A DNA stretch of 64,000 nt from Antedon bifida (lineage: Eukaryota; Echinodermata; Crinoidea; Comatulida; Antedonidae). The notes under the pieces are model-generated. The model was not told where the DNA came from, did no database searches, and was given only the letters and a program-made list of their open reading frames with translations. The position numbers and the translations under genes are program-made. Shown here one piece after another: positions 3,722 through 34,100 of the stretch (position 1 is the stretch's first letter; each line of letters begins with the position of its first letter). The stretch covers positions 10,509,395-10,573,394 of the forward strand of contig OY727100.1 in the NCBI GenBank assembly GCA_963402885.1. The letters are read 5' to 3'.

Positions 3722-6700
3722 ATGGAATTGGATCCTCCTGTTAAACTTCCTGTATCTGATTGTCTGCTGTCAGATGCTATCAACCAATCAAAAGACTGTG
3801 CTGTCTCACATGGTTTCGTTTTTCGGACCTTTGAGAATCCAACTTCTTCAGATACCGTGATGTGTGGGCCACATGCTCTTCTGCCAGCACCGATACCAAG
3901 GAAATATTTTCACCAACTTGCAGACGTGCAAATATACATTAATGAGCTGTTGTATCTTATTTCAAAAGACTATGATTTTATACGAGAAACATTGAAATCG
4001 TAAGAATCACAAAACAATATTTCTTTCTTGTTGAGCAGGACATGACACAAATGTTCACGAGTTTGTGAACCAGCTAGGTGATCCATACAGTAGAACCCTT
4101 CCTTTGGGTCACCCTGATTCATACTGAATGTATGCAGTTGTGTTTTTTATTCAACCGGACCGGATTTTCATGTGATCTTGTCATGAATTCTGGATAGATG
4201 GAAAATATGCTTACACTAAAAAAAAATTAATACTGTAATACAAATTCTGCTCTAAGTTGAATGTGATGATATAAAGTAAAATAGAGTCTTAAAAAACCCA
4301 AAGTTATTCGTTTCAATAAAAAGGTTTGGGTTAACTATAATAGTCTCAAAATACAGTAGATATAAATGAATGGATCTTTTTTTTTATTGGAAATTGTTTT
4401 AGAGCAGCAGTATCTGACGATTTCACTGGCAGGCTGTTGAAGATATTGGAAACAATATTAGAAGAAGGTATTGCTGATGTAAGTACACATGTTAAATGAT
4501 AATTTTAGATATTGAGGCTGCTTTCGCCATCTGGTAAGTTTGACAAGTTCCAAGCCTAGTCTACAGTAGCATGTTCTTGCAAACTTTAGCAAACAACAAG
4601 TTTGGCAATGAAAACATTGCCAAAGTTTGCTAGTGTAGATTATATAACACCTAAATAGATTCCAGTCATTTGATTGGACAATTGTGAGTCGTGATAAAAA
4701 GTAAGTGCTCTATCAATCAACCATATAGTGCGTCCCCATAACGACTGCATAACAACAATGTTTGCGCATGCTCCAGTGGCTTTGCGCATGCTCCCAACTG
4801 CTTTGCAGCGAGAGCGCTGTGAACAGGTTGAAGACCGGGAACTAAATGACAAATCTTTAAGCTGTAGAAAAGTAATTTGCAAAAGGTAAGTGCTTTACAG
4901 CTTCTTGCTAAGGTTTGTGCCAATCTCATCAAATGACAGTGTGTAGTTATGTGATCATGTAGGTAATCAAAGTGGCAACCTCCAGGAACTAGAGTTTTAA
5001 ACTTAATTGTGTAGACAAGACATTTCTCCAAAATGTAGCAAACTCTGAGTTTTTAAACATGAGTTTGGTGAAGTTTGCTATTGTAGGCTTTAGAAGACTA
5101 AAGTATAATACTAATTTTAATTCTGCAGTTAAGATAGATGTTGATGATGGTATCAAAAGTGATGCTGATAATATAACAATGATTTAGAATATAATTATAA
5201 GAATGTATTGAAATTGTAACATACTACTGTACAGTCAAAATGATAATTATGCAGATGACAATTCAAATGCCAGGGACCTAAATAAGTGTGTTTTTATTCT
5301 AGGCCGGAGTATTAGCACTTCTAAGATCAGATTACCTGTTGGATGGATCAACAGATGAGATGCTGCCAAAGATGGTTGAGATAAACACTATAGCAAGTAG
5401 CTTGGGGGCTGTCACAACAAATTTAACTCTAGTACATAGGTAAATAAAAGTAGCTTGGGGTTATCACAACAAATTTAACTCATTAGTTCATAGGTAAATG
5501 AGGGTGTCACGACAAATTTAACTCTAGTTCATAGGTAAATAACAGTAGCTATGGGGTCTCACATCTACATAAATTGATTCATTACATGTTTGCATACACG
5601 AACTGTGAGAAATACCGGCAGAAAGCATAGCTAGTTACACCTTATTTGATTACTATCATTGATTACTTTAATACTAGGGCAATACACATGCATGCAATAA
5701 CATCTCGGGACATCTCAGAACAAAAAAAAACATACCTCTCATCGGTGTGTTTTTTTTTTTTTTTCTACAAAATTATCTCCATACTTTGCAAACCTTTTAA
5801 TAGCATCACCATGGCTATTGGAACCTCCACTATGACTTGAATGATGATACGTCAAAGCTAATTCCTGCTGCTTAAGTGTCAAAGGTCGTTCAGTCTATAA
5901 AACCATAAGTAATCACTATCACAAAATGCTTTTTTATTTATAGATACACTACCCAACTTCTCGGTGGACGATGTGATGTAGAAAAGTCACTTCCGACAAA
6001 CAATCACATAGAAAAGTACTCAAAAGCATTTGTAAAAGCATGGGAAGTTTACAACACACCCAAGTATGTGCATTATTATTTTCAATTTTATGTTCAAACA
6101 GGCTTCCTAAGTTTTCACTCAGTAAATATAGTGAGTGTGTATCCAGGTATTCCATATGTAATAAGGCATCAGATTCACTGCTGGCGCAGTCTGAGAAGTC
6201 AAATTTCTGTAGCAAGGTTCAAATGTGACTTGGGAGTATTTTTACAGGCACTATCCAGTGCTTTAATTAAAGGGTCTTTCACACCTACTCTGGGTCTGAA
6301 TCCAGTTCAGGCTTGAGTCAAATTGCACATACAGCATTAGCATTTTCATGACTCATCAAGCAGCTACGTCCATATCAAGTAGGAGGATTGGCGCGAGCTG
6401 CATGTGTGTCATGAAATCAAAACATTTTGACGCGATTGTATTTGCCGCGCGTTGGAGCTGTAACTGGAGCAGGTGTGAAGAGGTGTCTGTGAGTGTGACA
6501 TCAAATCTTCCTTTCCACCTGTATAATCTTCTATTTCGATTTACAGTAAATTATTAAAAATAACAATTTGTTTTGGTTCCTAATGCTGTATATTTCATCT
6601 AAATGCAGGGCAGCTATCGTCTTTGTTGTCTCGACTACGGAAAGAAATGTATTTGACCAAAGACTTTTAGAGTTTGAAGTTAAGAAAATCAATTGGGACA

Positions 6701-9700
6701 TTCCAGTAAAGCGAATTACCCTATTGGACATTGGTTCAAAAGGAAAACTGTCAGGTGATAGGCGCTTAATAGTGTAAGTACTGTATAGTATGAAAGGTAG
6801 ATTCTTCCACAGTTATAAATATGACAAATCCTTGTAAACATTTACAAATTTAAAAAATGGTAAATCATGCAAAAGATAATTGATTGACCTAGACAATATC
6901 AAAATATGGGGCAAAATTGAATACGGATAAGTGAAGATGCGCTCTATTAAATGTGATGAGCTATGACGAAAGAGACAAAAATTCTCTATTTTATATTCGA
7001 GTGGCCATACGATGACGTCACAATGACCGGTTAATCATATTAATGCATGATTTAGCTTTAAATTTTTTCATTTTTTCCTAAAATTAGTGATGGTACTGAA
7101 GTTGCCATTGTTTACTACAGAGATGGATATGTTCCATCACACTTTAAGTCTGAGACGGTATGTATTAAATTTATATTTAAATCATTATAGGATATGCAAT
7201 AGGCATATCTTTTTTTTTATAATTTGCTGCATCTACGCTTGGCATATCTCCAATCCAGACACTACTGTACGGCCTAATTGAGGGTGTGTAAATGTTTGAT
7301 TTAACTAGTTATGACATTGCTCCTTCATAAATCAAGTTGTATTGCTGTTGTATTGGTCAGTTATCTGGTTCTTATAATATTAGGCCAGGTTTTTTGCTGT
7401 TTTGTTTGTAATCTTTAATTACCACCATCTTTTCTCACTATTATCTAGAGGGAGTCTAATCTTCACATAGTTTGTAGATGTTGTGTATGGATTGCATTTA
7501 CAAATAGATTCTGCATTTAATTGATGTATTTTGTTTGAGTTTAAAATATATAGAATATTTAATTCATGCAGGAGTGGAATGCTGTACTGTTGGCTGCAAG
7601 GTCTCGTGCAATATGCTGTCCAAACGTTTCGTTACACTTAGCTGGAACTAAGAAAGTCCAACAAGCGATAGCTAAGCCAGGGATGGTTGAAAGGTTCATA
7701 TCAAATCCAGATAAAGTGAAGGCAATCAGGGCAACATTCACTGGCCAATACTCTCTTGATATTGTAAGTACTGTACCGTAATATACCTCATAATTACGTC
7801 TATGGATAACCACTTACAGAGGGAAAATATTAAATGTCATGGGGAAATTTCCCGAATGAACGAAATCCAAAACGGTACTGGGTTTGGTCTACTAGCGTTC
7901 CTGCTTCTCATCCATTCATAGAAGCACTGATGAAGAAATTCTATCCGTGGTGACTAATAAAGTGTGGTCCCGAGACATGACTATATAATAAAAAGTGTAT
8001 ATAGATACAGTATAAGGAAGGAAACGTGGCATGCTATAGGTTCTTGCCCTTTGACATGATCACCTAAGATTTATAAATATAAACTTACGATATAAACTTA
8101 GTATTGTATATTCAGGAATAGCCGCTCCATAATCTTTTTGCTTTTCTTCCTTATATCTATATACACTTTTTATAATGTTAAATTATTATTTTTATACTAA
8201 CACATATAATTGTCTTTTTTATTTAATCTATATACAAGATCATTACATCCAACTATTTACCAAACTATTTACACTAATATAATCAAACATTGTATACTCT
8301 ATCTCCAACGAAACATTTCAATCTTCTGTCAACTAAAGCCGAAGTATATAAGTCATGTCCACATGAATAATAGTGCTATAAAGATAGTATTTTAAATGTC
8401 AAATTTTTTTAGGGTGCTGAAGGTGACAAGGCCATCGCAATGGCAATCGCCTCACCAGAAAAATTTGTGATGAAGCCCAACAAGGAAGGAGGGGGTAAGA
8501 CACTAAAATGAACTGTAATTTTACTCTTATTTTAAATATAGTAGTTTTTGCCATTGACGCATCTAAATGATGCAAGTTCAACTACAGCTTTACTAAATTG
8601 TATTGGTGTTATTTAGGAAATAATATCTATGGAGTTGACATTCGCACCAAACTCCTGGAAATTCAAAACACATCAGAAAGAAATGCGTATATCCTGATGG
8701 ATCGAATATTCCCGGTCACTGTCCCAGGCTACAAAGTAGTGTCGTCGACAGAGCTGCCGAAACTACAGAATATGGTCTCAGAGTTTGGCATGTTTGGAGC
8801 TCTGGTTAGGTAAGCAAATTATTAAACTCAGATTTGTTCTTTCTTTATATACAGTATTTAATAAATATACAATACATAATAATTGATAATATTGGGAACT
8901 CTTCTTTTCACATTTGTTAAGGCAACTAGGGATTGTATGGAATATTTTAACAGCATAAATAACCATAATCAGTAATATTTGCGTTCAGTTTTGGTTTTAC
9001 AGTGATGTGTTATAAAAGTCATCACCGATGGAGAGATACAGTTTGGTGTAAAGTTGCTTTCACATCATGCCCAAATGATAAAGTAAAATGAAAAGTATTG
9101 TGGGAAAACAGGTTCAGTCGTTCACACCAATCGTATGATTTGAATCCGTACCTGGTTCGGGCTCTGAATTCGGAGCGATGGATTAAGAAGCCATTTGTTT
9201 CTTGAAATCGTACATTTTTTACCTTTTGACCAATCAACAGTAAACATGAATGACCCTGCTTGACACCAGATAACTGAATTCATACTTGATGTGAAAGCAC
9301 GCTCAGCGCTGATTATTTTTATAATATTTATACTGAACTATCTTTGGAATGCTGTTGATATTTTCGAATTCATTTGTTTTTCTGATTGCTAAGTTGTTCT
9401 TGAGGTTGCTAAAATTGTGTGTTGATTAATAGAAACCTGGTGATACTAAGAAATGCCGCAATTCGTGTGGCCGCGCGTTTAAGACAGTGCCAGCGCATTT
9501 AAGACCGTGCACTGCAAATAACAGCCAAGTTATCGGCACAGGTTCTGATGGTAGAATAAGTCTTCTTTGATAAGGGACTTAAAACTGGATGTCCAGAGTG
9601 TACACATCTGGCTCATGAACCCTGTGCAACTTTCAGAAAGAGTATAGAGTTCTCCATATATATGGTCCTTCATTTTATCCCCTGTCATTTATCACTGCAT

Positions 9701-10132
9701 TGGGCTAACAATCCTCCCAGTGTAATACATTTTTCAGGGATGGGATGAAACAAATTTAAAATGAATGCTGGTTCTGATGGCATAGAACTCTTTATCTCTG
9801 TCTACACAAACACACACACACACACACACACTAGTTTGACAGATGAAGTGTGATGTGCCCAAATATGGGAGTGATATGACATCATCATGTCCTAAAGCAA
9901 ATGAATAATGTAAAATTTATGTATTTTACATTTAATACAGCGAATACTACTTCACAATCCTGTAATGGTTAACCCATGTTTGTATCTATTTCACTTTTCT
10001 TTTTCTAGTGACAAAAATGATGTTGTCCTGAACGAGTATTCAGGACATTTAGTACGAACCAAAGTCAATGGAGTTGATGAGGGCGGTGTCGCTGCGGGGG
10101 CCTCGGCTCTTGATACACCTTTCTTGATATGA
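3722..10132 (+). CDS. GSS: glutathione synthetase (eukaryotic GSS), proximal-terminal-exon isoform
   Basis: Joins gamma-glutamylcysteine and glycine with ATP to make glutathione; a cytosolic homodimer in known animals. Exons: 3722-3999, 4403-4478, 5303-5439, 5944-6063, 6609-6773, 7088-7157, 7572-7763, 8413-8494, 8617-8809, 10009-10132. All junctions are GT-AG and in phase, giving 478 residues against 474 in human. Family signatures read directly: VEINTIASS (metal/ATP-binding E144 and N146), [33 protein letters not shown], the glycine-rich [10 protein letters not shown] loop (E371), RTK (454-456) and GGVAAG (463-468). The ATG follows an acceptor-like CTGTAATAG, so a non-coding 5' exon probably lies upstream. 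D458 of the human enzyme is Glu462 here. AATAAA at 10694 could end this isoform. An alternative last exon lies at 13205-13328. Confidence 0.96.
4550..5091. mobile_element. probable MITE in GSS intron 2
   Basis: AAGCCTAGTCTACAGTAGCA at the left is mirrored by TAGCAAACTT/AAAGCCTACAATAGCAAACT on the complementary strand at the right end. A secondary inverted block (TTTGCTAGTGTAGATT near 4626-4642) pairs with the left end. Minus-strand open frames at 4640-5031 lie inside it and resemble no protein. Confidence 0.45.
5440..5550 (+). repeat. tandem copies of the 3' end of GSS exon 3 with its splice donor
   Basis: The last bases of exon 3 plus its donor (CATAGGTAAAT at 5435-5445) are repeated twice immediately downstream, with further CATAGGTAAAT donors at about 5494 and 5535. 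The copies keep the words TCACAACAAATTTAACT and AGTAGCT. Using a downstream donor would put a TAA right after the Arg codon, so only the first donor gives a full protein. Confidence 0.8.
6272..6485. mobile_element. MITE with TCTTTCACACCT ends (copy 1)
   Basis: GGGTCTTTCACACCTACTC at the left pairs with GAGCAGGTGTGAAGAG at the right in opposite orientation, about 215 bp apart, in GSS intron 4. A second member of the family lies at 36252-36409. Confidence 0.55.
9440..9640 (+). repeat. SINE-like repeat, degraded
   Basis: Contains TTTAAGACAGTG followed by a block (GGTTCTGATGGTAGAATAAG ... ACTTAAAA ... GTGTACAC.TCTGGCTCATG) that recurs in diverged form at 13850-13990 and partly at 43140-43180. 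The TTAAGACAGTG word also occurs in the tRNA-like head at 62278, which suggests one tRNA-derived family. Lies in GSS intron 9. Confidence 0.45.
9780..9900 (+). mobile_element. degraded CTCTGTCTACA MITE with a CA microsatellite
   Basis: CTCTGTCTACAcaaacaca... leads into about 12 CA dinucleotides (9808-9832) and then the MITE body words AGTGTGATGTGCCCAAATAT and TGACATCATCATGTCC. The right terminal repeat is missing. In GSS intron 9, close to the last exon. Confidence 0.6.
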
Positions 10133-11644
10133 ATATAGTTTTGTAACATTTAATAGTTAGAGGGATAATTAATACATGCCTTGAGTAATTATAACAAAGT
10201 TGACTAATATTCCATTTATTTGTACTAAGACATTGTTTTTAGCTTTGGTCAGACTCGCAGGCAAATATATTTGATTGTAGGTAATTAACATTACTGAGAG
10301 TGGGAATGGAATTTTTTATTAAGATTTTGTTGGTAATATCTTAATTATTCGAGCAGAAATTTCATGAAAATGTTCAAAGATTGTTGACCTCCTAAACCTT
10401 TTATTGATTTTTAAAATAAACTATGTACTATTTTATTATTTTATTTTTTTGTTAGAAATATATATTATTTTAATAAGTGAATACAGTAATATATACCAAT
10501 ATTGGAAATGCAGGTACCTGTGTATTTATAGAGGTTGTTTTTGATTACTGATCATCATTATTTTAAATGCCGAAATACCTTTTTTTATACAAAAATTATT
10601 TTTAATAGTAAAATAATTTAGTTAAATGTCTTTCCAAGCTTTTTGAAAGTTGTTGTTCATGAAATACTTTTTGGTAAATTGTTGAGGTTAGAAAATAAAT
10701 ACAGCCAACTGTTTTCTAGGTTCTAGGTGATGATTCACGTAATATTGGAAACAATGAATGGTGGGCTAACATGAAGAAAAGTAACTACAGACTTGTGGCA
10801 AGTCTAAGTCAACACTAAAAATATTCTAATTTAATTACAGATCCAGGTTTATTATACCGGATGGGTTTACATACATTAGGCACCATTTATATGTAATTTA
10901 CAAAAACAGATTTTTTAAAATAAATAATAGATATATAGATAAGAAGATACAAACAAATTTAATGTAAAAAGAATTATTTATGAAGGTTGATAACATAGTT
11001 GTGCTGAACACGTTCCTCTGTACTGTCAGTGTACCTTGATTTCTCCAGTATCTTGGGAAAATTCTGTAATACAGCATCACATGTGTTTCACATGTATCGC
11101 CTAAAATCATACACCATAATTCCTAACCCTGAACCTAACTTTACAGTACAAATATTGTCGAATTTGGAGATACAGCACTGAGAATCAGGTCTCGTCATAA
11201 TTTAAATGAAAGGGTCACTGCCATAGAATAAATAAAAAATAATATTCATCTGGACAGAGTTTTCGGTTTGTGTGTTTGATTTCCTGTGTTACGAGTGTAC
11301 AGTGGATGCTACCGCCATGCCACCAAGTCAAGTCAAGTGTTGGATCAATGGTTAGTTAGTATGGGTTTGGTCATACTGTGCATACTAGGGCCTGTAGGGT
11401 TTTTTGATATAAAATGTTATCAAGTACATGCTAACATTTATTATTATTAATATTTATTTTTTATTCCAAAAAGACTGCCTTTTGTGATGATTTGTGCATG
11501 GCATTGAACGCGTATTATTTTAACTTGTTTTTGAAAAGAAAAATATATATAAGTTACCCATAGAGCATGATAAAAGCATGTACTTTATATCATTCTGTAT
11601 CATACAACTCTACCAGGTGATACCAGGTATGACCCGTTAGTATT

Positions 11645-11788
11645 AAGCTCTGTCTACACTATCAAACTGAAAAAAAGGTGTGATGTGCCTTAATGTGGTG
11701 GTGGTGGTGGTGGTGACATCATCATATCCATATTATGGGCATATCACATTTTTTTGTCGCATAAAGTTTGATAATGTAGACAGAGCTT
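11645..11788. mobile_element. CTCTGTCTACA MITE, full copy
   Basis: Starts AAGCTCTGTCTACACTATCA and ends with the inverted TTGATAATGTAGACAGAGCTT. The body contains GTGTGATGTGCC and TGACATCATCATATCC. It is flanked by TTA/TA on both sides, as expected for a TA-targeting DNA transposon derivative. A GGT microsatellite has expanded inside it. Confidence 0.85.
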
Positions 11789-12430
11789 TAGAATGTTTAG
11801 TATGTACTTTATGCTTTTGTCATGTCACATGTTGCATCATCAAGTTTGTATGCATGAAATATATTTCATAACCATTACTCAATGCTATTATCAGCATTCA
11901 TCAAGGGATATTGCTTTTCAGTGCTAAGAACCTGTTTCTACTGGCAAGAAAAACTGGTTCAAAATGGCCTTGGCAGCTGAAATGGCAAAACTGAAACAAA
12001 TTTCTAATTTCATTTGCAACGAAACAAAAAAGCTGCAACCAAATAACAATCTTAATGACATCGTTCAGGGGAGGATGCAGAGGGTAGGGTCCAGGGTGCA
12101 CTCATTGACATGTGCTCATCCCACCCCGACTAATATTATTATTTTTTTATGTTAGCACTCTGTTTTAAAATATTCTGTATTCACTCCTGTAGTGTCAAAG
12201 CATGAGAAAATCAGCAAAAGCCTGCCCATAGGTTTTAGATTTGTTATAGTTCATTTGCTTTCTAGAAAGTTTCAATAGTGTATGCAAGAGACTTAATTCT
12301 GTAATTGACTGTGTGTTGCATTCTATTTAAAAAATCAAGTAATTTGACCACAACACAATGATTGGTCAACTCACTTGAATTGCGCCTACATCATTGCATT
12401 GCATCAAAGTGGAGAATCAAGCTTACTCTT

Positions 12431-12579
12431 AAGCTCTGTCTACACTATCAAACTAGTTTGACAAAAGAAGTGTGATGTGCCCAAATAGGGTAGTGATATG
12501 TCCAAATATGGTAGTGATATAACATCATCATGTCCATATATGGGCACATCAAATTTGTTTGATAGTGTAGACAGAGCTT
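12431..12579. mobile_element. CTCTGTCTACA MITE, full copy
   Basis: Same ends as the copy at 11645: AAGCTCTGTCTACACTATCA at the left and GATAGTGTAGACAGAGCTTT at the right, with body words AGTGTGATGTGCCC and CATCATCATGTCCATATATG. The upstream 12345-12428 segment resembles the body of a second MITE family seen complete at 41783-41940. Confidence 0.88.
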
Positions 12580-12600
12580 TACTGACTTCATTGTATGTTT

Positions 12601-12841
12601 GTATTGTTTTTTGTAGTGTATGCATGGGACATATTTGAACAAATATTTCTCTATGTATGTAGTGCTATAGTTTACGTTCCATTCCATGTTATAATATTTA
12701 CAGATAACAGCAGATTGTCTTAGTTGTTTTGTGTAGTGTATGCATGGGACATATTTGAACAAATATTTCTCTATTTATGTAATAGTGATATAGTTTATGT
12801 TCCATTCCATGTTATGATATTTACAGATAACAACAGATTGT
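12601..12841 (+). repeat. 120-bp direct duplication
   Basis: Two adjacent copies start with TTTTGTAGTGTATGCATGGG and end with ACAGATTGTCTTAG, about 120 bp apart, with few differences. A third fragment follows at 12842. Confidence 0.75.
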
Positions 12842-13204
12842 CTTAGTGTCTTGTGTAATGGAACATCTTTTATAAATGTTTCTCATCAATTTATTTAATG
12901 TTGTTGCGTTGAATGTTTATCATTTTAATTTCTCATTATTATTAATGCAAATTATCAAGTAGTACAACAATTACATGGATCGATGTTGAATTTAATAACC
13001 AAAAATTGGAGCGAAAAAAAAAAATTGGTATATGTGAAATCATTTTTTTTTCTGTACTGATTTTTATTAATCTTCATTTTCATGTTTTTTTTTGTGAGGC
13101 TGTTCTATTGTATATATATATTTAATTCATCACCCTTGCTGGTTAACTTATATAAATGTTATAATCTAACATTTTTTTACTCTAAATTATTATTTTTTTT
13201 CTAG

Positions 13205-13328
13205 TGACAAAAAAAATGCTGTAATGAACAAGTTCGCAGGACATTTAGTAAGAACAAAACCAAATGGTGTAGATGAGGGCGGTGTAGGTATCGGAGCCTC
13301 AGTTATAGACACACCTTACTTAGTGTGA
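13205..13328 (+). CDS. GSS: alternative terminal exon of glutathione synthetase
   Basis: A second GSS last exon, exactly the same length (124 nt) and phase as 10009-10132, preceded by a polypyrimidine tract and TTTTTTCTAG, opening with the same AGT-GAC junction and closing with its own stop. Joined to exon 9 it gives another 478-residue protein. The two C-terminal 41-residue segments differ at 14 positions. GHLVRTK (450-456) and NGVDEGGV (458-465) are identical. The distal exon has VMNK where the proximal has VLNE, and GGVGIG where the proximal has GGVAAG. The VMNK and final PYLV are closer to the human sequence, whereas the AA to GI change is not. An intact frame and both splice landmarks argue against a pseudoexon. 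Mutually exclusive alternative last exons are the natural reading; a dead tandem copy is the alternative. Confidence 0.85.
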
Positions 13329-13849
13329 CTTTTTAACACACTCAGACACTATGCTTTCCACGATTTGTTTTTCTATATATGTCTTTTTTGGGCAGGATGG
13401 TTTGTTATTGTACTTGTCAACATTTTTTCCTTTTAAATCTTTTTTTTTATTTCGTTTATCCAGTTATCTTTTGATCTTCCTGGTGGTCTTTTTACTTTCC
13501 TTCATTGTTGTGTTTAATTCAGAGTTTTGGATTGCTGTAATTCTTATTTTTGGCAAATATAATTTTTAGACATATATAAATATAAATTTCATTGATGTGC
13601 TAGTGCCTAACTCAACTTTCCGCAAACTTTGAGCCACGAAATAAAAAGGTTTGCAGAACGCTGGTCTAACTAACACTAATTGTTTTTAATAGAGTAGTTT
13701 CCATTCTATTAGTACAGATTTAAAATTAGAACAAAAAAGTATAAATAATATATTGTAATTTTGCTGTAATTTTTAAAAGTATACATTCCTACTAAAATAT
13801 TTTTATATTTACATATATAACCATATAGTGAGTGAATGGTTGAGCAGTT

Positions 13850-15669: not shown

Positions 15670-16390
15670 ACATTTTGTTGGATTCTAAAGGTATCCTTAT
15701 TAAAGGGACATGTTGTTAGGTTCTGAAGGTATCCCTATTAAGGGACATGTTGGGTTCTGAAGGTATCCCTATTAAGGGACATGTTGGGTTCTGAAGGTAT
15801 CCCTATTAAGGGACATGTTGGGTTTTGAAGGTATCCCTATTAAGGGACATGTTGGGTTCTGAAGGTATCCCTATTAAGGGACATGTTGGGTTCTGAAGGT
15901 ATCCCTATTAAGGGACAAGTTGGGTTTTGAAGGTATCCCTATTAAGGGACATGTTGGGTTCTGAAGGTATCCCTATTAAGGGACAAGTTGGGTTCTGAAG
16001 GTATCCCTATTAAGGGACATGTTGGGTTCTGAAGGTATCCCTATTAAGGGACATGTTGGGTTCTGAAGGTATCCCTATTAAGGGACATGTTGGGTTCTGA
16101 AGGTATCCCTATTAAGGGACATGTTGTTGGGTTCTGAAGGTATCCCTATTAAGGGACATGTTGGGTTCTGAAGGAATCCCTATTAAGGGACATGTTGGGT
16201 TCTGAAGGTATCCCTATTAAGGGACATGTTGGGTTCTGAAGGTATCCCTATTAAGGGACATGTTAGGTTCTGAAGGTATCCCTATTAAGGGACATGTTGT
16301 TAGGTTCTGAAGGTATCCCTATTAAGGGATATGTTGGGTTCTGAAGGTATCCCTATAAGGGGAAATGTTGTTGGGTCAACAAGGTATCCC
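15670..16390 (+). repeat. 34-bp minisatellite, about 21 units
   Basis: Head-to-tail units of 34 bp (GGTTCTGAAGGTATCCCTAT then TAAGGGACATGTTG), interrupted in a few places by a 3-bp GTT insertion that makes 37-bp units. Related single-copy sequence occurs at 15583-15670 and, in a different arrangement, at 45420-45560 (TATTAAGGGGACACCTTTGG), so the array looks amplified from part of a dispersed repeat. Confidence 0.92.
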
Positions 16391-16509: not shown

Positions 16510-16698
16510 AAGCTCTGTCTACATTATCAAACTTTATGTGACAAAAAATGTGATGTGCCCATATATGGACATGATGACATATCAATACCATATTTGGGTA
16601 TATCACTACCATATTTGGGTATATCACTACCATATTTGGGTATATCACTACCACATAGCACATCACACTACAGTAGTTTGAAAGTGTAGACAGAGCTT
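16510..16698. mobile_element. CTCTGTCTACA MITE with internal expansion
   Basis: Starts AAGCTCTGTCTACATTATCA and ends AAGTGTAGACAGAGCTT. The internal ATATTTGGGTATATCACTACC block is repeated three to four times, lengthening this copy to about 190 bp. Confidence 0.85.
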
Positions 16699-18088: not shown

Positions 18089-21000
18089 TTAAACAAGCCT
18101 GATCTTCTTGCTAGCGTTTTCAACGTGTTGATTTTCAGCTGAGCTTCCTAATGGTGACACTGATTGCAGCAGCTTGGACTCAGATGCACGTCCAAATAAG
18201 GAGAGTAGGAGGGCAACCCCATAACCTGTGGCACGCTCACCCTAAAAGATGAAATGAAATTATAATACACATTATTTTATTATTCTTCAAATCAACTGAC
18301 AGATATAAAACCACTGCTAATGAGTTGACGGGGGAACCCATGTTTTCAGTCTCATATGAGACTTGGGTTCTGATGATCAGAATTTGAAACTGAAAGGATT
18401 TGAACCAATGACTCTGTAATTACTAGTAAGCATGCATGTGAACCACTAGGCCACAGTGCAACTGCAAGTCGTTAAAAAGTGTATCTATCAATGTTTGTCC
18501 TCAAGATTTAATGCATTACTTCAGTGGACCAACTAAATGGAGAATTATCTACTGTAGAAGTTAGCCGAACAACTGGTTTAGCTGGTCTATAACTTTATCA
18601 TAAAGCAGGCCAACCAACCAAAAAAAGCTACAGTAACTAAATGGACCATAGTAAACAAGGCCTAAACGTTCTTCAGTGCTCAATTCTCACCCTAGCTAGA
18701 CACCCTCAAACAAACTGAACCTGCTTCTGCTTCAAACAGAAATGTCCATATACAGTGCCAGCTTACCTAGACAGCTATATGAAACCATAAACTTACCGTG
18801 TAACAGGGGGATGCAATGTCTAAATGAATCCATGAGCCTGGGTAGTCAAATCCAATATGGGCGCCAATGAACAGACCAGCACATGAGCTTTGTGCATTGC
18901 CACGATCCTAAGAGATACAAATTAAAACAATTATTATTCCAATTATTTTCGTACACTTATATACTGTATTGTAATATTAACAAATATATACATAGCTGAT
19001 ACAGTAATTGTATTGAAAACTTACAGCTACAGAGTTCTTCATATCAGCAACAGCGCTTCCAAATTCACTAAAATGCAGCTCGGGACAATAAACCAGAGGA
19101 AACACAAGATCGCCACTATTTTTACCTATTAAAAACAAAAGCATTGAAATATGACATTAATATCAGGACATGACATCATAAAAATGTGTTCATATCGGGA
19201 CACCAGCCTTCATTTATACATAGCCTGACCTAAGCCCATAATTACAAAGATCATAGTCATGATACGTTCACAATGGAATGTCAACATGAACATGCACTTT
19301 ATACAAGAGGTTCGTATACCTATCAGTCGACTACAACCCATGTGGACGCAAACTTTGTGCATGTTCACTCTAATCAAACAGTCCATATTGTACTTGTACC
19401 TACCTGCTTTGACAGCTGCATCTTCCCACTGCTCAGTGTTGCAAAGGACAGCGGAATGATATTTTCCAGTGGAAATTCCCTGTGCTCCAGTCAGTGTTGC
19501 CATATCAAGGACTATGTCGGACTTCAAATCTTTTACTGCATAGGCGACCTACAATTGAATTGTATTTTTAAATATAACTAACTGCAATTTTTCTTAGAAA
19601 TACTATATATGTTTTAAAGGGATGTGGGAGCATGTAAAAGACTTTTGACAGATCTAAAACGGCAATTATTTTTGCATACCAAAAGTTCTGCAAACCAGTA
19701 GTAAAGTTACCATTAAATACAATATTGGTTGTTGCAGTAATGAATAGACAACAGGCGTGAGGCTAGCTATGTACTGTAAAACAAACATATTGGTCCAGAA
19801 AATGTGTACAAACATAGTATGTTTAGGTCAAGAAAAGGTCAAAGGTTGCAAACACAACAAAACTTACACCATCTCCTAGAACAAGTCTTCCTTCAGCATC
19901 TGTGTTGTTAATCTCAACAGACCTAGCAAAGAAAAATATAACGAATATCAATTCTAAATTTAATACTAAAGCTAGAAAAATGGTACCCTTAGGGTAAATT
20001 ACATTAGGCCATTGTATTTTGAGACAGTATTACTGTAAAGAAGCCATGTTTCGCGAGTTGTTGCGTCGTATCAACTACGCAACCTCCTCTGTTGTGTACC
20101 GCAATGGCTGGATCTACAAATACCATGCCAGGCTGCCAAATTAAAACAGTGTTTAGTCTTGATTGATGGTGTTTTAATTAATTACACATATCCCTGGAAC
20201 AATGCATTTCGTAATTCACGGTTAGCTAGTTAGTTAGTAAGTAAAACGTGTATCAATGCTCAGTACAGTCGAGCTTGATTCCGCAAAGACTGTGTGGAGC
20301 ACAAGTAATTGCTTGTAAATATACAATAATATAGATAGAAAATGTGATTGCAAGCCATAAATAAATTATTAAATTGTAAAATGCCCATACCTTCCAGAAT
20401 ATAGTATATGAACATCGTCTGGCCGTGTGGCTAAAGGTCCTACTGCATTTTCTGCTAGACAGAAAACTGCATTCAAATTTTCTTTAAAACCCTAAAAAGG
20501 TTAAAAATAGTTACTACAATATATGTACATGTTTCAAATAAACAATTGGTAATTTGGGGATTGTGGCGTCTGACCCTACCCCACTGTTAGGATACTAAAC
20601 TATGTTTAATGCTTAATGACATAAAATGAATCATAAGAATGATATGGGGTCTAAGCACACCCTCAAATTTGCCAAAATGTTAAAGCACTAAAATCCAAAC
20701 ATACAGAGGCCAAAGCATTACATAGGCCTGGGATAAAGGTCACTTCCCCACCCAAACCAATTACACATTATACTTACTAGTTTAACAGCAGCTGCGAATG
20801 CGCCAAGGATTGCTGCAGCGCCCCCACAATCTCTCTTCATTCCAGGCATTGCTGTCTGTAATATAAGATGATTATATGATTAAAGCATATTATAGTCAAT
20901 ATATCCATAAATCTATGTTTTACAGTTACAAATTGAATACATTATTGAATGAAGTTAAACCCTAATACTTGTTTTAGATTTAATGATAGCAACTAAGCAC

Positions 21001-24000
21001 ATGTTTTCTCTCTAATCTATTAAGAACACACAGTAACTTATGTCATAGATCTATTCTGCTGGCAGATGCATTAGGCTAATGAGAAAAGTTATGAACTAGC
21101 AGATGAAAGTAGAAAGCTAATAATAAGTAAATTATCAATTTAACAAGTAGTGGAGCTGTAGCTTGGTGTTTAAATAGTGGAGCTGTAGCTTGGTGATTAA
21201 GTAGTGGAGCTGTAGCTTGGTGGTTAAGTAGTGGAGCTGTAGCTTGGTGGTTAAATAGTGGAGCTGTAGCTTGGTGTTTAAATAGTGGAGCTGTAGCTTG
21301 GTGTTTAAATAGTGGAGCTGTAGCTTGGTGTTTAAATAGTGGAGCTGTAGCTTGGTGGTTAAATAGTGGAGCTGTAGCTTGGTGGTTAAGTAGTGGAGCT
21401 GTAGCTTGGTGGTTAAGTAGTGGAGCTGTAGCTTGGTGGTTAAATAGTGGAGCTGTAGCTTGGTGGTTAAATAGTGGAGCTGTAGCTTGGTGGTTAAATA
21501 GTGGAGCTGTAGCTTGGTGGTTAAATAGTGGAGCTGTAGCTTGGTGGTTAAATAGTGGAGCTGTAGCTTGGTGGTTAAATAGTGGAGCTGTAGCTTGGTG
21601 GTTAAGTAGTGGAGCTGTAGCTTGGTGGTTAAGTAGTGGAGCTGTAGCTTGGTGGTTAAATAGTGGAGCTGTAGCTTGGTGGTTAAATAGTGGAGCTGTA
21701 GCTTGGTGGTTAAGTAGTGGAGCTGTAGCTTGGTGGTTAAGTAGTGGAGCTGTAGCTTGGTGGTTAAATAGTGGAGCTGTAGCTTGGTGTTTAAATAGTG
21801 GAGCTGTAGCTTGGTGGTTAAATAGTGGAGCTGTAGCTTGGTGGTTAAATAGTGGACTTGTAGCTTGCTGGTTAAGTAGTGGAGCTGTAGCTTGGTGGTT
21901 AAGTAGTGGAGCTGTAGCTTGGTGGTTAAGTAGTGGAGCTGTAGCTTGGTGGTTAAGTAGTGGAGCTGTAGCTTGGTGGTTAAATAGTGGAGCTGTAGCT
22001 TGGTGTTTAAATAGTGGAGCTGTAGCTTGGTGGTTAAGTAGTGGAGCTGTAGCTTGGTGGTTAAGTAGTGGAGCTGTAGCTTGGTGTTTAAATAGTGGAG
22101 CTGTAGCTTGGTGTTTAAATAGTGGACTTGTAGCTTGGTGGTTAAATAGCGGAGCTGTAGCTTGGTGGTTAAATAGTGGAGCTGTAGCTTGGTGGTTAAG
22201 TAGTGGAGCTGTAGCTTCGTGGTTAAGTAGTGGAGCTGTAGCTTGGTGGTTAAGTAGTGGAGCTGTAGCTTGGTGGTTAAATAGTGGAGCTGTAGCTTGG
22301 TGGTTAAGTAGTGGAGCTGTAGCTTGGTGGTTAAGTAGTGGAGCTGTAGCTTGGTGGTTAAGTAGTGGAGCTGTAGCTTGGTGGTTAAATAGTGGAGCTG
22401 TAGCTTGGTGGTTAAGTAGTGGAGCTGTAGCTTGGTGGTTAAGTAGTGGAGCTGTAGCTTGGTGGTTAAGTAGTGGAGCTGTAGCTTGGTGGTTAAGTAG
22501 TGGAGCTGTAGCTTGGTGGTTAAATAGTGGAGCTGTAGCTTGGTGGTTAAATAGTGGAGCTGTAGCTTGGTGGTTAAATAGTGGAGCTGTAGCTTGGTGT
22601 TTAAATAGTGGAGCTGTAGCTTGGTGTTTAAATAGTGGAGCTGTAGCTTGGTGGTTAAATAGTGGAGCTGTAGCTTGGTGGTTAAATAGTGGAGCTGTAG
22701 CTTGGTGGTTAAATAGTGGAGCTGTAGCTTGGTGTTTAAATAGTGGAGCTGTAGCTTGGTGGTTAAGTAGTGGAGCTGTAGCTTGGTGTTTAAATAGTGG
22801 AGCTGTAGCTTGGTGGTTAAGTAGTGGAGCTGTAGCTTGGTGTTTAAATAGTGGAGCTGTAGCTTGGTGGTTAAATAGTGGAGCTGTAGCTTGGTGGTTA
22901 AGTAGTGGAGCTGTAGCTTGGTGGTTAAATAGTGGAGCAGTGGAGCTGTAGCTTGGTGGTTAAATAGTGGAGCTGTAGCTTGGTGGTTAAATAGTGGAGC
23001 TGTAGCTTGGTGGTTAAATAGTGGAGCTGTAGCTTGGTGGTTAAATAGTGGAGCTGTAGCTTGGTGGTTAAATAGTGGAGCTGTAGCTTGGTGGTTAAGT
23101 AGTGGAGCTGTAGCTTGGTGGTTAAATAGTGGAGCTGTAGCTTGGTGGTTAAATAGTGGAGCTGTAGCTTGGTTTTTAAATAGTGGAGCTGTAGCTTGGT
23201 GGTTAAGTAGTGGAGCTGTAGCTTGGTGGTTAAGTAGTGGAGCTGTAGCTTGGTGGTTAAATAGTGGAGCTGTAGCTTGGTGGTTAAGTAGTGGAGCTGT
23301 AGCTTGGTGGTTAAGTAGTGGAGCTGTAGCTTGGTGGTTAAGTAGTGGAGCTGTAGCTTGGTGGTTAAGTAGTGGAGCTGTAGCTTGGTGTTTAAATAGT
23401 GGAGCTGTAGCTTGGTGGTTAAGTAGTGGAGCTGTAGCTTGGTGGTTAAGTAGTGGAGCTGTAGCTTGGTGGTTAAGTAGTGGAGCTGTAGCTTGGTGGT
23501 TAAATAGTGGAGCTGTAGCTTGGTGTTTAAATAGTGGAGCTGTAGCTTGGTGGTTAAGTAGTGGAGCTGTAGCTTGGTGGTTAAATAGTGGAGCTGTAGC
23601 TTGGTGGTTAAGTAGTGGAGCTGTAGCTTGGTGGTTAAATAGTGGAGCTGTAGCTTGGTGGTTAAATAGTGGAGCTTTAGCTTGGTGGTTAAATAGTGGA
23701 GCTGTAGCTTGGTGTTTAAATAGTGGAGCTGTAGCTTGGTGATTAAATAGTGGAGCTGTAGCTTGGTGATTAAATAGTGGAGCTGTAGCTTGGTGGTTAA
23801 GTAGTGGAGCTGTAGCTTGGTGATTAAATAGTGGAGCTGTAGCTTGGTGGTTAAATAGTGGAGCTGTAGCTTGGTGGTTAAGTAGTGGAGCTGTAGCTTG
23901 GTGGTTAAGTAGTGGAGCTGTAGCTTGGTGGTTAAGTAGTGGAGCTCAGGCCCGTAACCAGGGGGGGATCGGGGGGATCGTACGATCCCCCCCGCTGAAC

Positions 24001-27000
24001 AGCGAGTTCCGCTTGGCCTCCCACTTTTTTTTTGCTGGGCATACTAACACAACACGACGATTGTTCACTACAGGCCTAGTCAAACATTAATAAATTTAAT
24101 TAATATATATATATATATTTTAACTAAAATATAAAAACCTAACACTAAAATTTACAAGATAAGTTCTATTTGATAACTGCTGAACATCGTGGTTCTGGAG
24201 CTAGCGAGCTGTACACAGAGCATAGTTGTTTGCTTGACATAACAGGGTATTCCCCTACACAGGTCTCCGCGTGCGTGTGACGTGCCCAGCCAGCTGCTTG
24301 ATAGAGAAAGCATGCAGCTCACACGCAAGTGCAAGATGCAACGGTTGAGTGAATTCAGAGATCATCTTAATTCCATGGTTTTTTACCTAAACACCACATG
24401 ATGGTGAATATGCCTGTTAAAGTCTCAATGATACGATCCCTAATGTACCATGTTGTTGCTAGGAGGCTTGAAAGGAGGAGGGATCTAGCCTAATTTCGGT
24501 CGGCAAGAGAATGCCGTCCTCTGACAATATAAGGTCGGCAATTGAAATTTGTGGGCTGGTAATTACACCAACTTATAGTTCATAAACAAAAGAGAATAGC
24601 CGGAAATGCGATTTGCGGCCATAGGCCTATAGAGAAAAAAAAATCGAGGGTATGGTTCCAGTGGCGGATCTAGCGGGGGCGTATGGGGCGTAAAGTACAG
24701 GCAAGTTGTTAGCTTGCATTTGGTACCCTAGGTAAGTATCAGCTGCATGTTCCACATGTCGTAATTTGCGAGCTTTAGAGTGTTTGGTAAATGACATTAT
24801 GAGATGTTTGTAAATCGTTTTAAACGACTTGCAATGCGCTAGAACGTCAAAATTTCCAGGGGCCGTCGGCCCCTGGACCCCCACCGGGGGCCCTTGGCGG
24901 CCCCCTGGCCCCCAGCCTATGTTTGCTCGCTTCGCTCGCAAAGCTACGCCACCCCTATTTCAATATCCTGGATCCGCCCCTGGGTTCCACTAAAGAACTT
25001 AACGATCCACCCCGCCGTCAAACCTGGTTACGGCCCTGGGAGCTGTAGCTTGGTGGTTAAATAGTGGAGCTGTACACTTGATGGTTATATAGCGGAGCTG
25101 TAGCTTGGTGGTTAATGTGCTTGCCTTCCAGTCAGAAGGTCCAGGGTTCAATCCTGACCTAGTGTCAGGTTGTAACTCACGATTCTTTCAACTCCACTCC
25201 CTATAGCCTCAAATAAGTTTATAAGCATGATAAACTATAAAATAGTTATCTATAATAATATTCATCCTGTAATCATCCTGGAGTTTGTGCTCGCTGTTGG
25301 ATGAGTATGAAAAAAACACCAATTTTCCTCACCTTTCCTTTGATAGATAGTCCACCTGTGTCATACACGATACCCTTGCCCACCCAGCTTACAGTCTGTG
25401 TGGCAGATGGCGATTTGTGCTGGAGCACAACCATTGCAGGAGGGTGGTCAGCTGCTTTGCCCACTCCATAGATACCTCCAAACCCACGACGATCCAGTTC
25501 TTCACCTCTGACAATGATTGGTTCAATCCCTAAATCACTCCCAACTATTTTAATTTCCTAAAAAAATAATAATAATAAACTGTTATTATAATAATTTCAA
25601 AACTACTTCAAATGGTGAGTGAGAAAATGGTGAATAAATTAGTAATGAAAGAAGAATTAAGCATCCCATAATCGGCGGCAGAAATAATCAGACACCCTTC
25701 ATCTGGTGGCTTATGTGCCCACCCCACCTCGACCTCAATTCTGGACTGATCCACTCCTAGTAATGATATAACTTGCCTCAATAAACGCATCTGTATGCAT
25801 TTCATTACATGGCGTATCCACTATACGACCTGTCAACCTGATACCTTTAGCTGCTTGTTCTAGACAATTCATCTCATCCTCAGTCAGGCTTTGGTCGCTA
25901 TCTTCGCCAACTAAAATAAACTCAACAGTCACTGTGCGTTTTCGTAATTTATTTGCACCGGTCTTGCGTGAGTAGAGTGGAAATGCACGTGCTACAGCGC
26001 AACCAGAAGCAAACACAGACTTCCGCTCACATGCAATCTTTAAAAAATAATGATGGATGATTACATTATCAAAAAGGTACTGAAATGAAGTATGAAACTG
26101 CTAAACAATTATCTAATGTAAAATTTTCTTTATTTGATTATGTGCTTTTAGTTAGAATTAAGAAGCATAAGCCTAGTGAACTTTGCCAATTAATAAAACA
26201 AGGAATTTCACGCACGGTCAATGATGGTCATAAAATACTAATTTTCCTGATAGCATTATCTTTTTGATCATTATTTGCATTATTATGTTATTGTTAATGT
26301 TAGTGTTATTATTGTAAAGGTAGTACAACGTTTATTTCAGGCTCTGCCTTTGTCCTCCATCTTAATTTGTATTTTTTGTTTGTTATGATGGAAATAAAGA
26401 TTGATTGAAAGATTGATTGATTATTAATTATTTTGGAGTTTATAAGAATTTTGAAAGTATCAAGATGTTAACGTACAACTATACATTCATTTCCAACATT
26501 GGTCAAATAGGCTTTTACAAGTTTTGGAATAGCATGAGCTCTCGACGGTGTATTATGCCTACTGGCTTTTAACGGCAGACAAGCAATAGTGGCATTGTTG
26601 AACCAAATAGATATGTGATCTGTCGGTGATGGCTGTAGAGATGATACTGCAACTTTGAAAGTCTGAAAAATAAAATCATTAATCAATTTATAAGCAAATT
26701 AATCAATCAGCTCAGTGCTCAAGAAAATTCATGATAGCCTGGCCCTACTCTAGCCGGATGGAAGGGCTTAGACTAGGCCTATAAAAATGTTTTTTTATGT
26801 ACTGTTGTGTAGGCTAGGCCTACAGTAAATTTACAGTAGGCCTACTATAGGCTAGCCTAGCTTAATAATAATGGCAATTGCCTAGCCTATTAAATGACAA
26901 TAAATAATGGTTCTGACTCTGACTTTTACTACAATATTTCTAGGCCTAGAAAATAAGTAGGCCTAGCCTAGCAGGTTAGCGATCTAGGCTCCTCAGCCGC

Positions 27001-31181: not shown

Positions 31182-34100
31182 ATGTCAAAACTACTTAAAA
31201 CCCCAAAATACGCAGAACAGCTCCTGCACAGCTTGCAAGAACTTCGAAAAGATGTTAAACACTGTGACCTTATTTTGGTCGTAGATGGAAAAGAGTTCAG
31301 TGTTCAGCAGAATGTGCTTTGCGCAGTATCGCCATATTTTAGGTAAGCTGCAGCTAGCCTGGCTGTGAGTTCCTTTTTTTAACAAAACACTACACTGATA
31401 ATAATATTAGGATTATTACAGTATGGTAATATTGAAACAATATTTATGAAATTTCTTGACACTGTATTTGTTTTCAAAATTAAAATAATTAATAATAATG
31501 TAATTCTACTTTTTACACCTATGATCCACTCTGTGCTATGTGCACACATGCTACATTCACATGCTCTTTGTATAAATATGCTAATTTGCATATATAGGCC
31601 TATCTATGCCACATGAACACGCTACTTTGCATATGTCACATGAACATGCTTGCTATATTTTGCATATGACCATGCTATTTTGCAGTGCAAGTGACATGCC
31701 CATGCTATTTGGCACCACTTTCCACCATACTACATGCCTGTGCCACAATATGCTACTAACCACATGCCACAATGCTACATACATACATGTGCCATCACTC
31801 TCCTTTTAAAAAGAGCATTTAACTTGCATTGCACCATGCTAATAAATTACAGTTTCTCGGAGAGTAAAATGTAAATTGTTCAGTTTTGATTATTAAAAAA
31901 GGGGAGACATAAACAAACAACAAAATACCCAGGTTTTAATCAGAATATTGCAAAAGTAATTTATTTTTGTATTTTATTTTAAAAGTTATAGAATTCTTAT
32001 GTACAGTAACTTAAGAGTCTCGGGTATTTCACGCCATAGTTCAACCCCTTTACTGACTAAGCTAAATGATTTTTGAGCGGTTCTTTTAAATTGTGTGTAG
32101 AATTGGTGTTTTTGTCGAGTATATTTATCGTGGACATCATTCTGAGCATAAAAAATAAAATTATTTTGAAAAATCGCTTGGAGTAAATTATGAAAAGCTT
32201 TATGCATTAGAGAAACTGTATAGTTTTATTAAATTATAAAGATCAAGAGTTTTAACAACATTAAAAATTGGTTTACTTGGACTGGTATGGGACTTTCATA
32301 ACAAGTCTTTTTTGTAATATGTATAAACAATTTAAACTAGTTTTAAAGGTATTACCACAGACTTCACAACAATATGTAAAATAAGGCAAAACTAATGATA
32401 AATAATAATTATAATATAATAAATAAAGCTGATGTATTTAGTAAATGTTTTACTTAATAAAGAATTCTAATACTTTTAGAAATTTTGGAATGAATATATT
32501 CAATATGATACTTCCAATTTAATTAATCAATAATTAATAACTCTTAAAAACTTTATTATATTTACCCGTTCAATTTCAACACCACTAATAACTAAATATG
32601 TTGGTTGATGATTGTTTTTGTGACTAAAAATAATATACTTTGTCTTACTCTGGTTCAACATCAAATTTATTTACCTTAAACCAGGTATCAATTTTTTTTA
32701 GCTCATCATTATTATAATATTACAGATAAATTGCAGATTCTTACCAGAAAGAAGTATATTTTTATCATCAGCATATTAAAAGCATGTATTTCATTAGGGA
32801 AGAAGCATTACAAATGTCATTTATATAAAAGGAATAAAGTGGGCCCCAAAATTGATCCCTGGGGGATGCAACATAAAATGTATCACCATGTATTATTACA
32901 TGGTTTTCTGTTAGAGAGATAATTTTGGATCCATTTATTGGCAATTCCATGTATACAATACTAGGCTTCAAATTTGTTTTAAGGATATTTTGGTCAATGG
33001 TATCAAACGCCTTTTTTAAGTCAATAAAAATTTAGACATGTTCATATCCTTTAATGCATGGCTAGTGGACATATTTATTCAAATTGTCCTGAATATAAAA
33101 TATCAAATTTGTCTATAAATTTCAACAGACGAGTGTTAAATAGTTTCTTACATTTTAGAAAATTGGGGCAACAAGGAGATCGGTCGATAAACTACTTTTA
33201 TCCCCAGCTTTGTAGATTGGAACAATTTTTGCAACCTTAAAGGTATCTGGGAAAATGCCAGTCTCAAGCGACCGATTACAAATATGTGCTATTATGCTCA
33301 TGCCCCAGCTGGCTACTACTTTGTGCCTTAATGAATAATTCTGCACACTCTCTGGCGTCTTAGAACTAACGTGAGACTTGAAAATAGTTTAGTAATTGTG
33401 ATAGCTAAATTAGGATTAATTGGGCTGTCCTGAATCTATTCTGATTATTTCTTGTACTGTGTAATTATATAGATTAGAAATAAAATGCAAACACAGATGG
33501 TTTTATTACCATAAGTTGTATATATTTATTTAATTGATACGAGCAATCAGGCAGGAAATGGTTTGCAATTAATTGTTTCAGATTTGATAATTCAATATTC
33601 TATTACTCCATAGGTCTTTATTTAACTATGAAGGTAGATCAAGTCTTGAAAGCAGAAATGGCAAAGCTATCAAAAACATTGACATTAATGATGTAAACGC
33701 CAAAACGTTTGACCAGATTATAAAATATGTATACTGTGGTGAAATTGAGTTAAACGATGGTAACATTCAAGATGTCCTGCAGGCTTCGGATGTCCTACTC
33801 ATGGCTGACTTGAAGAACCTTTGCTGTGAATTTCTTGGTAAAGATTTCTCTTTAGGTGGCATTTTCATTTAGAATAAAACTGTCACTGTACACTGTGATC
33901 CAAGTGAAAACGACTTGCAGTGTATTAGTGCTTGTATTTAATTTTGTTTGTGTTTCTTTTTTGTTTCGTTTTGGTATTTAAAATAATATTTTTATAAGGC
34001 GATATCTGTTATATTATAACATAACATTTCCATTATTATAACAACCAATAGATTCTTCTGTAGAATGTCACTTATGTGAATAAAGTTAGTTAGTTAAGTT

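What the first reader, a model, noticed from the sequence alone, without database searches (positions are those of the whole stretch)
10009..13328. Glutathione synthetase has two intact alternative last exons that differ in the acceptor-amino-acid loop
Seen: exons 10009-10132 and 13205-13328 have the same length, phase, splice landmarks and stop position, and encode C-termini differing at 14 of 41 residues. The catalytic RTK (454-456) is kept in both, but the loop GGV-AA-G becomes GGV-GI-G, and NE becomes NK at 446-447. Known: in legume homoglutathione synthetase, replacing the two alanines of this loop by Leu-Pro is the determinant of beta-alanine use instead of glycine. Inference: the distal isoform may accept another amino acid, or bind glycine differently, so one gene could make two thiol tripeptides by alternative splicing.
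Basis: partly seen in the sequence, partly recalled or inferred. Interest (0 to 1): 0.88.

Follow-up and report, generated by a model that had tools for sequence, protein, structure and literature searches.

The report
Glutathione synthetase with two alternative endings
An animal gene for the enzyme that finishes glutathione carries two intact, interchangeable last exons, and the second alters the enzyme's grip on the final amino acid, so one gene might make two versions of the enzyme, though it is not yet shown that the second is used.

Summary
The window has a eukaryotic-type glutathione synthetase gene of ten coding exons (3722-10132) and a second, homologous last exon at 13205-13328. Each ending gives an open 478-residue protein; 14 of 41 residues and 31 of 124 bases differ. 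The distal copy looks maintained: dN/dS 0.27, 12 of 14 replacements conservative (51% expected, P = 0.008), 9 of 9 residues invariant in four solved enzymes kept, splice acceptor intact. Two family profiles score the distal ending as normal except in the acceptor loop: restoring AA removes 6.0 of a 6.8-bit deficit, and GI costs nearly as much as homoglutathione synthetase's LP. Gly-Ile is absent from 44 readable loops of 46 bacterial relatives and from a description of 23 eukaryotic enzymes.

A second acceptor remains open: LP alone gave fission yeast enzyme weak serine use, not beta-alanine, and two tested nematode enzymes from clades with altered loops prefer glycine. Most likely this is an alternative-last-exon pair giving two active enzymes with different acceptor-site kinetics. 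Transcription, conservation in relatives and substrate use could not be tested.

The parts
3722..8809 (+). Shared coding exons 1-9 of glutathione synthetase (3722-3999, 4403-4478, 5303-5439, 5944-6063, 6609-6773, 7088-7157, 7572-7763, 8413-8494, 8617-8809), residues 1-437 plus two bases of codon 438; the ATG at 3722 is my choice of start
   Evidence: GT/AG at every junction and an open spliced frame; 42% identity to human GSS over the aligned stretch; TIGR01986 equivalog 445.6 bits (with the proximal ending) against a cut-off of 329.8
8810..10008 (+). Intron to the proximal last exon (1,199 nt); acceptor tract 15 of 16 pyrimidines at -20 to -5
10009..10132 (+). Proximal last exon, acceptor loop GGV-AA-G, ends FLI-stop
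10415..10420 (+). First AATAAA after the proximal stop (candidate poly(A) signal)
   Evidence: consensus match only
10133..13204 (+). 3' UTR of the proximal ending plus the rest of the interval skipped when the distal exon is used; holds two foldback elements (11645-11788, 12431-12579) and a 123-nt tandem duplication (12604-12857)
13205..13328 (+). Distal last exon, acceptor loop GGV-GI-G, ends YLV-stop; acceptor tract 12 of 16 pyrimidines
13640..13645 (+). First AATAAA after the distal stop (candidate poly(A) signal)
   Evidence: consensus match only

Best explanation
This is a tandem-duplicated alternative last exon pair in a single glutathione synthetase gene. A transcript spliced from 8809 to 10009 ends in the canonical AA-loop enzyme. 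A transcript that skips that exon and its poly(A) site, and splices 8809 to 13205, ends in the GI-loop enzyme. One transcript cannot express both endings, because the proximal exon carries its own stop. Both proteins keep the ATP-grasp domains, the acceptor-carboxylate arginine (R454) and RTK. They differ most tellingly where the flexible A-loop closes over the acceptor amino acid: Gly at 466 should free the backbone whose amide holds the acceptor carboxylate, and Ile at 467 adds bulk. I expect the distal isoform to be an active ligase with a different Km or selectivity for the acceptor, most likely still using glycine, used in particular tissues or conditions. Shown: the anatomy, the signature of past selection and the loop change. 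Inferred: transcription, activity and altered acceptor kinetics.
For: Same length, phase, stop and splice landmarks. dN/dS 0.27 between the exons. 12 of 14 replacements have BLOSUM62 at or above 0, against 130 of 256 (51%) possible nonsynonymous single-base changes, binomial P = 0.008. Nine last-exon residues are invariant in four solved outgroup enzymes taken alone, and both endings keep 9 of 9; with 15-16 neutral substitutions on one lineage, an open frame plus those nine residues survive in 2-3% of simulations. Each exon keeps residues of distant enzymes that the other lacks. TIGR01986: the distal deficit is 6.8 bits, 6.0 of it from GI alone; Pfam on the last 141 residues agrees (distal 155.7, with AA restored 160.0, proximal 159.2). 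Human amides 461-462 bind the glycyl carboxylate. Tandem duplicated last exons are a recognised class: 77 of 236 human events are C-terminal (PMC9741552).
Against: No transcript, relative's genome or assay could be examined. Of 13 last-exon residues invariant in the three glycine-using outgroups (human, potato, yeast) the proximal ending breaks none and the distal three: A466G, A467I and L472I, which fits relaxed constraint as well as new function. Identity to yeast is lower for the distal ending (13 of 39 against 18 of 39), though about equal for human, potato and soybean. If the distal exon died only recently, its frame would still be open; with 8-12 neutral substitutions the simulated survival is 6-16%. 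Nematode enzymes from clades with altered loop residues prefer glycine. The loop binds the acceptor through main-chain amides, so side-chain changes could matter little.
Confidence: 0.62

Rival explanations
1. The distal isoform has a different preferred acceptor (for example serine, beta-alanine, alanine or another small amino acid) and makes a second gamma-Glu-Cys-X thiol tripeptide in the same animal.
For: The GI loop departs from the family profile almost as much as LP does: proximal ending with GI 144.9 bits, with LP 143.9, unchanged 150.9. At the second loop position, homoglutathione synthetase (Pro) is the only other enzyme whose residue I saw outside Ala, Ser, Gly and Thr (the nematode loop residues themselves were not visible to me). 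Changing this pair alone created serine use in S. pombe enzyme. Val453, in the place of the second of the two further residues exchanged there, is as in hGSHS, but in both isoforms and in 37 of the 45 bacterial relatives in which the pair before RTK could be read. Exon choice governing a biosynthetic enzyme's substrate has a precedent in helminth COQ-2 (PMC7434440).
Against: LP alone did not give beta-alanine use. Tested nematode Clade 1 and 2 enzymes prefer glycine, and the Clade 3 enzymes tested, with highly variable loops, accepted none of the offered acceptors. Gly-Ile matches no loop of known altered specificity that I met. No echinoderm report of such a tripeptide appears among the 15 of 1,322 papers listed, which is a weak test.
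Confidence: 0.2
2. The distal exon is a relic or rarely used exon: an old duplicate that was functional for most of its life but is now not spliced in, or makes a poor enzyme without a role.
For: The distal ending breaks 3 of 13 residues invariant in the three glycine-using outgroups, the proximal none. The proximal acceptor has the better pyrimidine tract (15 against 12 of 16) and lies first, so it should win by default.
Against: Open frame, nine invariant residues kept, conservative replacements, dN/dS 0.27 and an intact acceptor.
Confidence: 0.25
3. The distal chain is a regulatory partner: glutathione synthetase is a dimer, and a slow or acceptor-altered subunit could tune activity or cooperativity of mixed dimers rather than make a new product.
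For: The enzyme is dimeric in trypanosome, human and yeast (PMC2845819) and the purified nematode proteins are homodimers (PMC5919673). Both isoforms share exons 1-9, and the trypanosome interface elements described (strands 1-2, helices 2, 7 and 10) lie outside the last exon, so mixed dimers should form.
Against: No direct evidence for mixed dimers or for a regulatory role.
Confidence: 0.12

Closest known systems
Eukaryotic glutathione synthetase (GSS; PF03917, PF03199, TIGR01986)
   Same: Both isoforms are full-length members; 42% identity to human over the aligned stretch.
   Different: One gene with two last exons; the distal acceptor loop is GI, not seen in the set examined.
Legume homoglutathione synthetase (PDB 3KAJ, 3KAK, 3KAL)
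   Same: Departure at the same two loop residues (Leu-Pro there, Gly-Ile here).
   Different: A separate gene rather than an exon (PMC3473041); different residues; the Met-Val pair before RTK is Leu-Val here in both isoforms; no product known.
S. pombe GSH2 AT/LP mutant (PMC3473041)
   Same: Change at the same loop pair, with the rest of the enzyme left as a normal synthetase.
   Different: Laboratory mutant with Leu-Pro; gained serine use.
Plant-parasitic nematode GS-like enzymes (PMC5919673)
   Same: Natural animal enzymes with altered residues at these two loop positions.
   Different: Arose by gene expansion; the tested Clade 1 and 2 enzymes prefer glycine, the tested Clade 3 ones used no acceptor offered.
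Tandem duplicated exon substitutions, notably helminth COQ-2 exons 6a/6e (PMC7434440) and the human catalogue (PMC9741552)
   Same: Homologous or equal-length exons swapped by splicing; in COQ-2 the swap changes residues near a substrate site.
   Different: COQ-2 exons are internal; [quoted passage not shown]

Membership tests
Eukaryotic glutathione synthetase | Passes the curated equivalog cut-off over full length | tested here: met
   TIGR01986 445.6 (proximal) and 438.8 (distal) bits against 329.8
Eukaryotic glutathione synthetase | Glycine-rich loop EGGGNN and acceptor-carboxylate arginine in R[TS]K | tested here: met
   EGGGNN 371-376 and R454/K456 invariant in the alignment
Eukaryotic glutathione synthetase | A-loop GG[V/I]-X-small-G with Ala, Ser, Gly or Thr at the second variable position (my wording) | tested here: inconclusive
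   Proximal AA meets it; distal GI has Ile there, seen in 0 of 44 readable bacterial loops (46 loci; L010 and L036 not readable). Homoglutathione synthetase breaks the rule too (Pro), so it does not define the wider family
Eukaryotic glutathione synthetase | Joins gamma-Glu-Cys and glycine | not testable with these tools
   No assay
Homoglutathione synthetase | Leu-Pro in the A-loop with Met-Val before RTK | tested here: not met
   Gly-Ile and Leu-Val
Homoglutathione synthetase | Prefers beta-alanine | not testable with these tools
   No assay
Tandem duplicated (mutually exclusive) alternative last exons | Homologous neighbouring exons of the same phase with intact splice acceptors and stops | tested here: met
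Tandem duplicated (mutually exclusive) alternative last exons | Both exons under purifying selection | tested here: inconclusive
   Pairwise evidence points that way (dN/dS 0.27, conservative replacements, 9 of 9 invariant residues), but it was not tested between species and recent loss is not excluded
Tandem duplicated (mutually exclusive) alternative last exons | Both endings found in mature mRNA | not testable with these tools
   No transcript data; no genome held for the window

The most novel reading that the evidence does not exclude
An animal uses alternative last exons of its one glutathione synthetase gene to switch the terminal amino acid, so that it makes glutathione and a second gamma-Glu-Cys-X thiol tripeptide from the same locus: the plant trick of homoglutathione done by splicing instead of gene duplication.
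Probability: 0.17. Interest if true: 0.9.

Novelty: new variant of a known kind. Interest (0 to 1): 0.6.

Why it matters
The natural tripeptides with another last residue that I met in the papers are from plants, and in legumes and rice a synthetase gene of its own makes them (PMC3473041, PMC6508825, passages). A gene that swaps the acceptor loop by exon choice would give a controlled comparison in which everything but 14 residues is constant, and would make the question of which residues set acceptor choice directly testable. If the distal isoform merely tunes glycine affinity, it is still an unusual way to regulate glutathione output.

Tried and rejected
Second gene rather than second exon: tblastn of the whole proteins finds the ten exons plus the distal exon, and otherwise only hits with E-values of 0.2 or more; rejected for the window, not for sequence beyond it. 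Allelic or assembly duplicate: rejected, since the exons differ by 25% and the flanks show no similarity. Pure chance: rejected by shuffles. NE to NK as a functional change: rejected, since K447 is the human state and E447 the yeast state.

A point mended on re-reading: the nine invariant residues used in the simulations came from an alignment that included the distal protein, which is circular; one search shows that the same nine are invariant in the four outgroups alone.

Searches that led nowhere: the window's own genome is not held; two viral-contig scans found no relative. Literature listings showed nothing on alternative splicing of this gene or on echinoderm thiol tripeptides: 20 of 181 papers listed; 20 of 4,594; 15 of 1,322; 15 of 6,783; only listings were seen and the library holds open licences only, so absence is not established.

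Full report
What is there. The plus strand from 3722 carries a glutathione synthetase gene whose nine shared coding exons join with GT/AG at every junction. Either last exon, 10009-10132 or 13205-13328, completes a 478-residue open frame. Both proteins pass the NCBI equivalog model for eukaryotic glutathione synthase: 445.6 and 438.8 bits, cut-off 329.8. Both match Pfam GSH_synth_ATP at 353.8 and 350.3 bits. The best-scoring solved relative is human GSS (372 bits; 42% identity in the alignment).

Is the second last exon more than chance? Yes. The proximal 41-residue peptide finds the distal exon at 62.8 bits, against a maximum of 23.1 bits for 200 shuffled peptides. The repeat finder lists the pair independently as a 148-nt direct repeat, 75% identical, which covers the exon and 24 nt of acceptor tract. 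Identity beyond it is 33% and 26%, that is, none. No further credible fragment of the gene occurs in the window.

Is the distal exon alive? Three signs say it was under selection for much of its history. dN/dS between the exons is 0.27 (14.2 synonymous differences on 29.5 sites, 16.8 nonsynonymous on 93.5). Of 14 replacements 12 are conservative, against 51% of possible nonsynonymous single-base changes, P = 0.008. Nine last-exon residues are invariant in human, potato, soybean and yeast enzymes, and the distal ending keeps 9 of 9; under neutral change with 15-16 substitutions these residues plus an open frame survive in 2-3% of simulations started from either exon. The limits: with only 8-12 neutral substitutions the figure is 6-16%, so recent death is not excluded. 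Of 13 residues invariant in the three glycine-using outgroups, the distal ending breaks three (466, 467, 472) and the proximal none. Pairwise dN/dS cannot tell which exon carried the constraint, although each exon retains residues of distant relatives that the other lacks. Identity of the distal against the proximal ending is 19 against 17 of 39 to human, 19 against 20 of 41 to potato, 17 against 16 of 40 to soybean, but 13 against 18 of 39 to yeast. dS of about 0.8, from few sites, suggests an old duplication.

What differs. Restoring AA in the distal protein raises its score from 438.8 to 444.8, against 445.6 for the proximal one: 6.0 of the 6.8-bit deficit sits in two residues. On the C-terminal 141 residues, reverting G466 alone gains 3.2 bits and reverting I467 alone 2.7; putting GI or LP into the proximal ending costs 6.0 and 7.0 bits. 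Pfam gives the same picture: 159.2 proximal, 155.7 distal, 160.0 distal with AA, 154.9 proximal with GI, 154.0 proximal with LP. So outside the loop the distal ending is about as good a synthetase ending as the proximal one, and in the loop it is nearly as far from the norm as homoglutathione synthetase.

How unusual is GI? One scan of the bacterial and archaeal genome collection gave 46 relatives. The loop was readable in 44; L036 is cut by the contig end, and the reading frame I took for L010 does not show the loop. The second position is Ala 35, Gly 5, Ser 3, Thr 1; the first is Cys 20, Ser 13, Val 7, Ile 4. Many of these loci are close relatives of each other, so they are not independent. 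A published comparison of 23 eukaryotic enzymes gives the first position as Ala, or rarely Ser, Ile, His or Met, and the second as usually Ala, otherwise Ser or Gly (PMC2845819, passages). S. pombe has Ala-Thr and Medicago homoglutathione synthetase Leu-Pro (PMC3473041, parts 1-3 of 4). Gly-Ile was seen nowhere in this material; the nematode loop residues are in a figure that I could not see.

What the loop does. In human and trypanosome enzymes the A-loop lies at the glycyl end of glutathione; main-chain amides of human Val461 and Ala462, and the Arg450 side chain, bind the glycyl carboxylate. The pair 466-467 aligns with human Ala462-Ala463, and R454 with Arg450. In S. pombe enzyme AT to LP kept glycine at 30% of Vmax and added serine with Vmax/Km 0.78 against 6.83 for glycine; beta-alanine needed the further pair before RTK. 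That pair is Leu-Val in both isoforms here and Met-Val in soybean homoglutathione synthetase; Leu-Val is also the common pair in the bacterial relatives, 37 of 45 readable. Of the nematode enzymes, tested members of Clades 1 and 2, where these residues differ from Ala-Ala, prefer glycine, and tested Clade 3 members used none of the acceptors offered (PMC5919673, passages). Hence altered acceptor kinetics is the safer forecast, and a new acceptor a real but minority possibility.

How it would be regulated (inference). The proximal acceptor has the stronger pyrimidine tract (15 of 16) and comes first; the distal one has 12 of 16, still above the gene's eight other acceptors, which have 8-11. AATAAA hexamers follow both stops, first at 10415 and 13640. 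Default use of the proximal exon, with the distal exon used when proximal splicing or polyadenylation is suppressed, fits this anatomy.

Place among known things. [quoted passage not shown] COQ-2 of helminths is a precedent for exon choice governing a biosynthetic substrate (PMC7434440, abstract and section 5). I saw no report of such a pair for glutathione synthetase in the listings, which show only the top 15-20 papers each of an open-licence library. Verdict: new variant of a known kind, worth an RNA-seq check and one enzyme assay.

Limits. No genome of the species is held, the collections searched are of prokaryotic genomes and viral contigs, and no transcripts were available.

Noticed in passing
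5407-5579: The 3' end of exon 3 with its splice donor (...CATAG|GTAAAT) is repeated in the following intron, giving decoy donors; read by eye, going on past the true donor meets a stop at once, so they are probably not productive.
   Followed up: partly
5303-5439 and 8413-8494: Both isoforms carry Ala149 where the four solved enzymes aligned have Ser (human Ser149), and NKEGGGNN where those four have QREGGGNN, so the shared body is slightly unusual too.
   Followed up: partly
11645-11788, 12431-12579, 16510-16698: Three foldback elements of 144-189 nt with terminal inverted AAGCTCTGTCTACACTATCAAACT (8 matches in the window with up to 3 mismatches, mean 0 expected); two lie between the alternative exons. 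Possibly a MITE family.
   Followed up: partly
21148-23946: A 27-nt minisatellite of about 103 copies (96% matches) leaves long open frames on both strands, up to 936 codons; it lies between pieces of what looks like a minus-strand M17 aminopeptidase gene, so it is probably intronic.
   Followed up: partly
15676-16370: A 34-nt tandem repeat, about 20 copies, downstream of the gene.
   Followed up: no
25738-26100 (-), 35240-37281 (+), 59547-60092 (-): Neighbouring genes by Pfam: M17 aminopeptidase N-terminal domain (27.5 bits, cut-off 27), BACK and Kelch, TIR domain (28.1 bits, cut-off 28). By eye only: further aminopeptidase pieces at 19213-19548 and 25276-25557 (-), a BTB-like exon at 33591-33869 (+), a bromodomain-like exon near 46973-47248 (-) and reverse-transcriptase-like remnants near 32771-33388 (-).
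   Followed up: partly
L017, L022, L023, L046: Bacterial synthetase relatives (two labelled UBP9, one unnamed bacterium, one Burkholderiales MAG) carry EGLVIGG in place of EGGVxxG, a second unusual acceptor loop.
   Followed up: no
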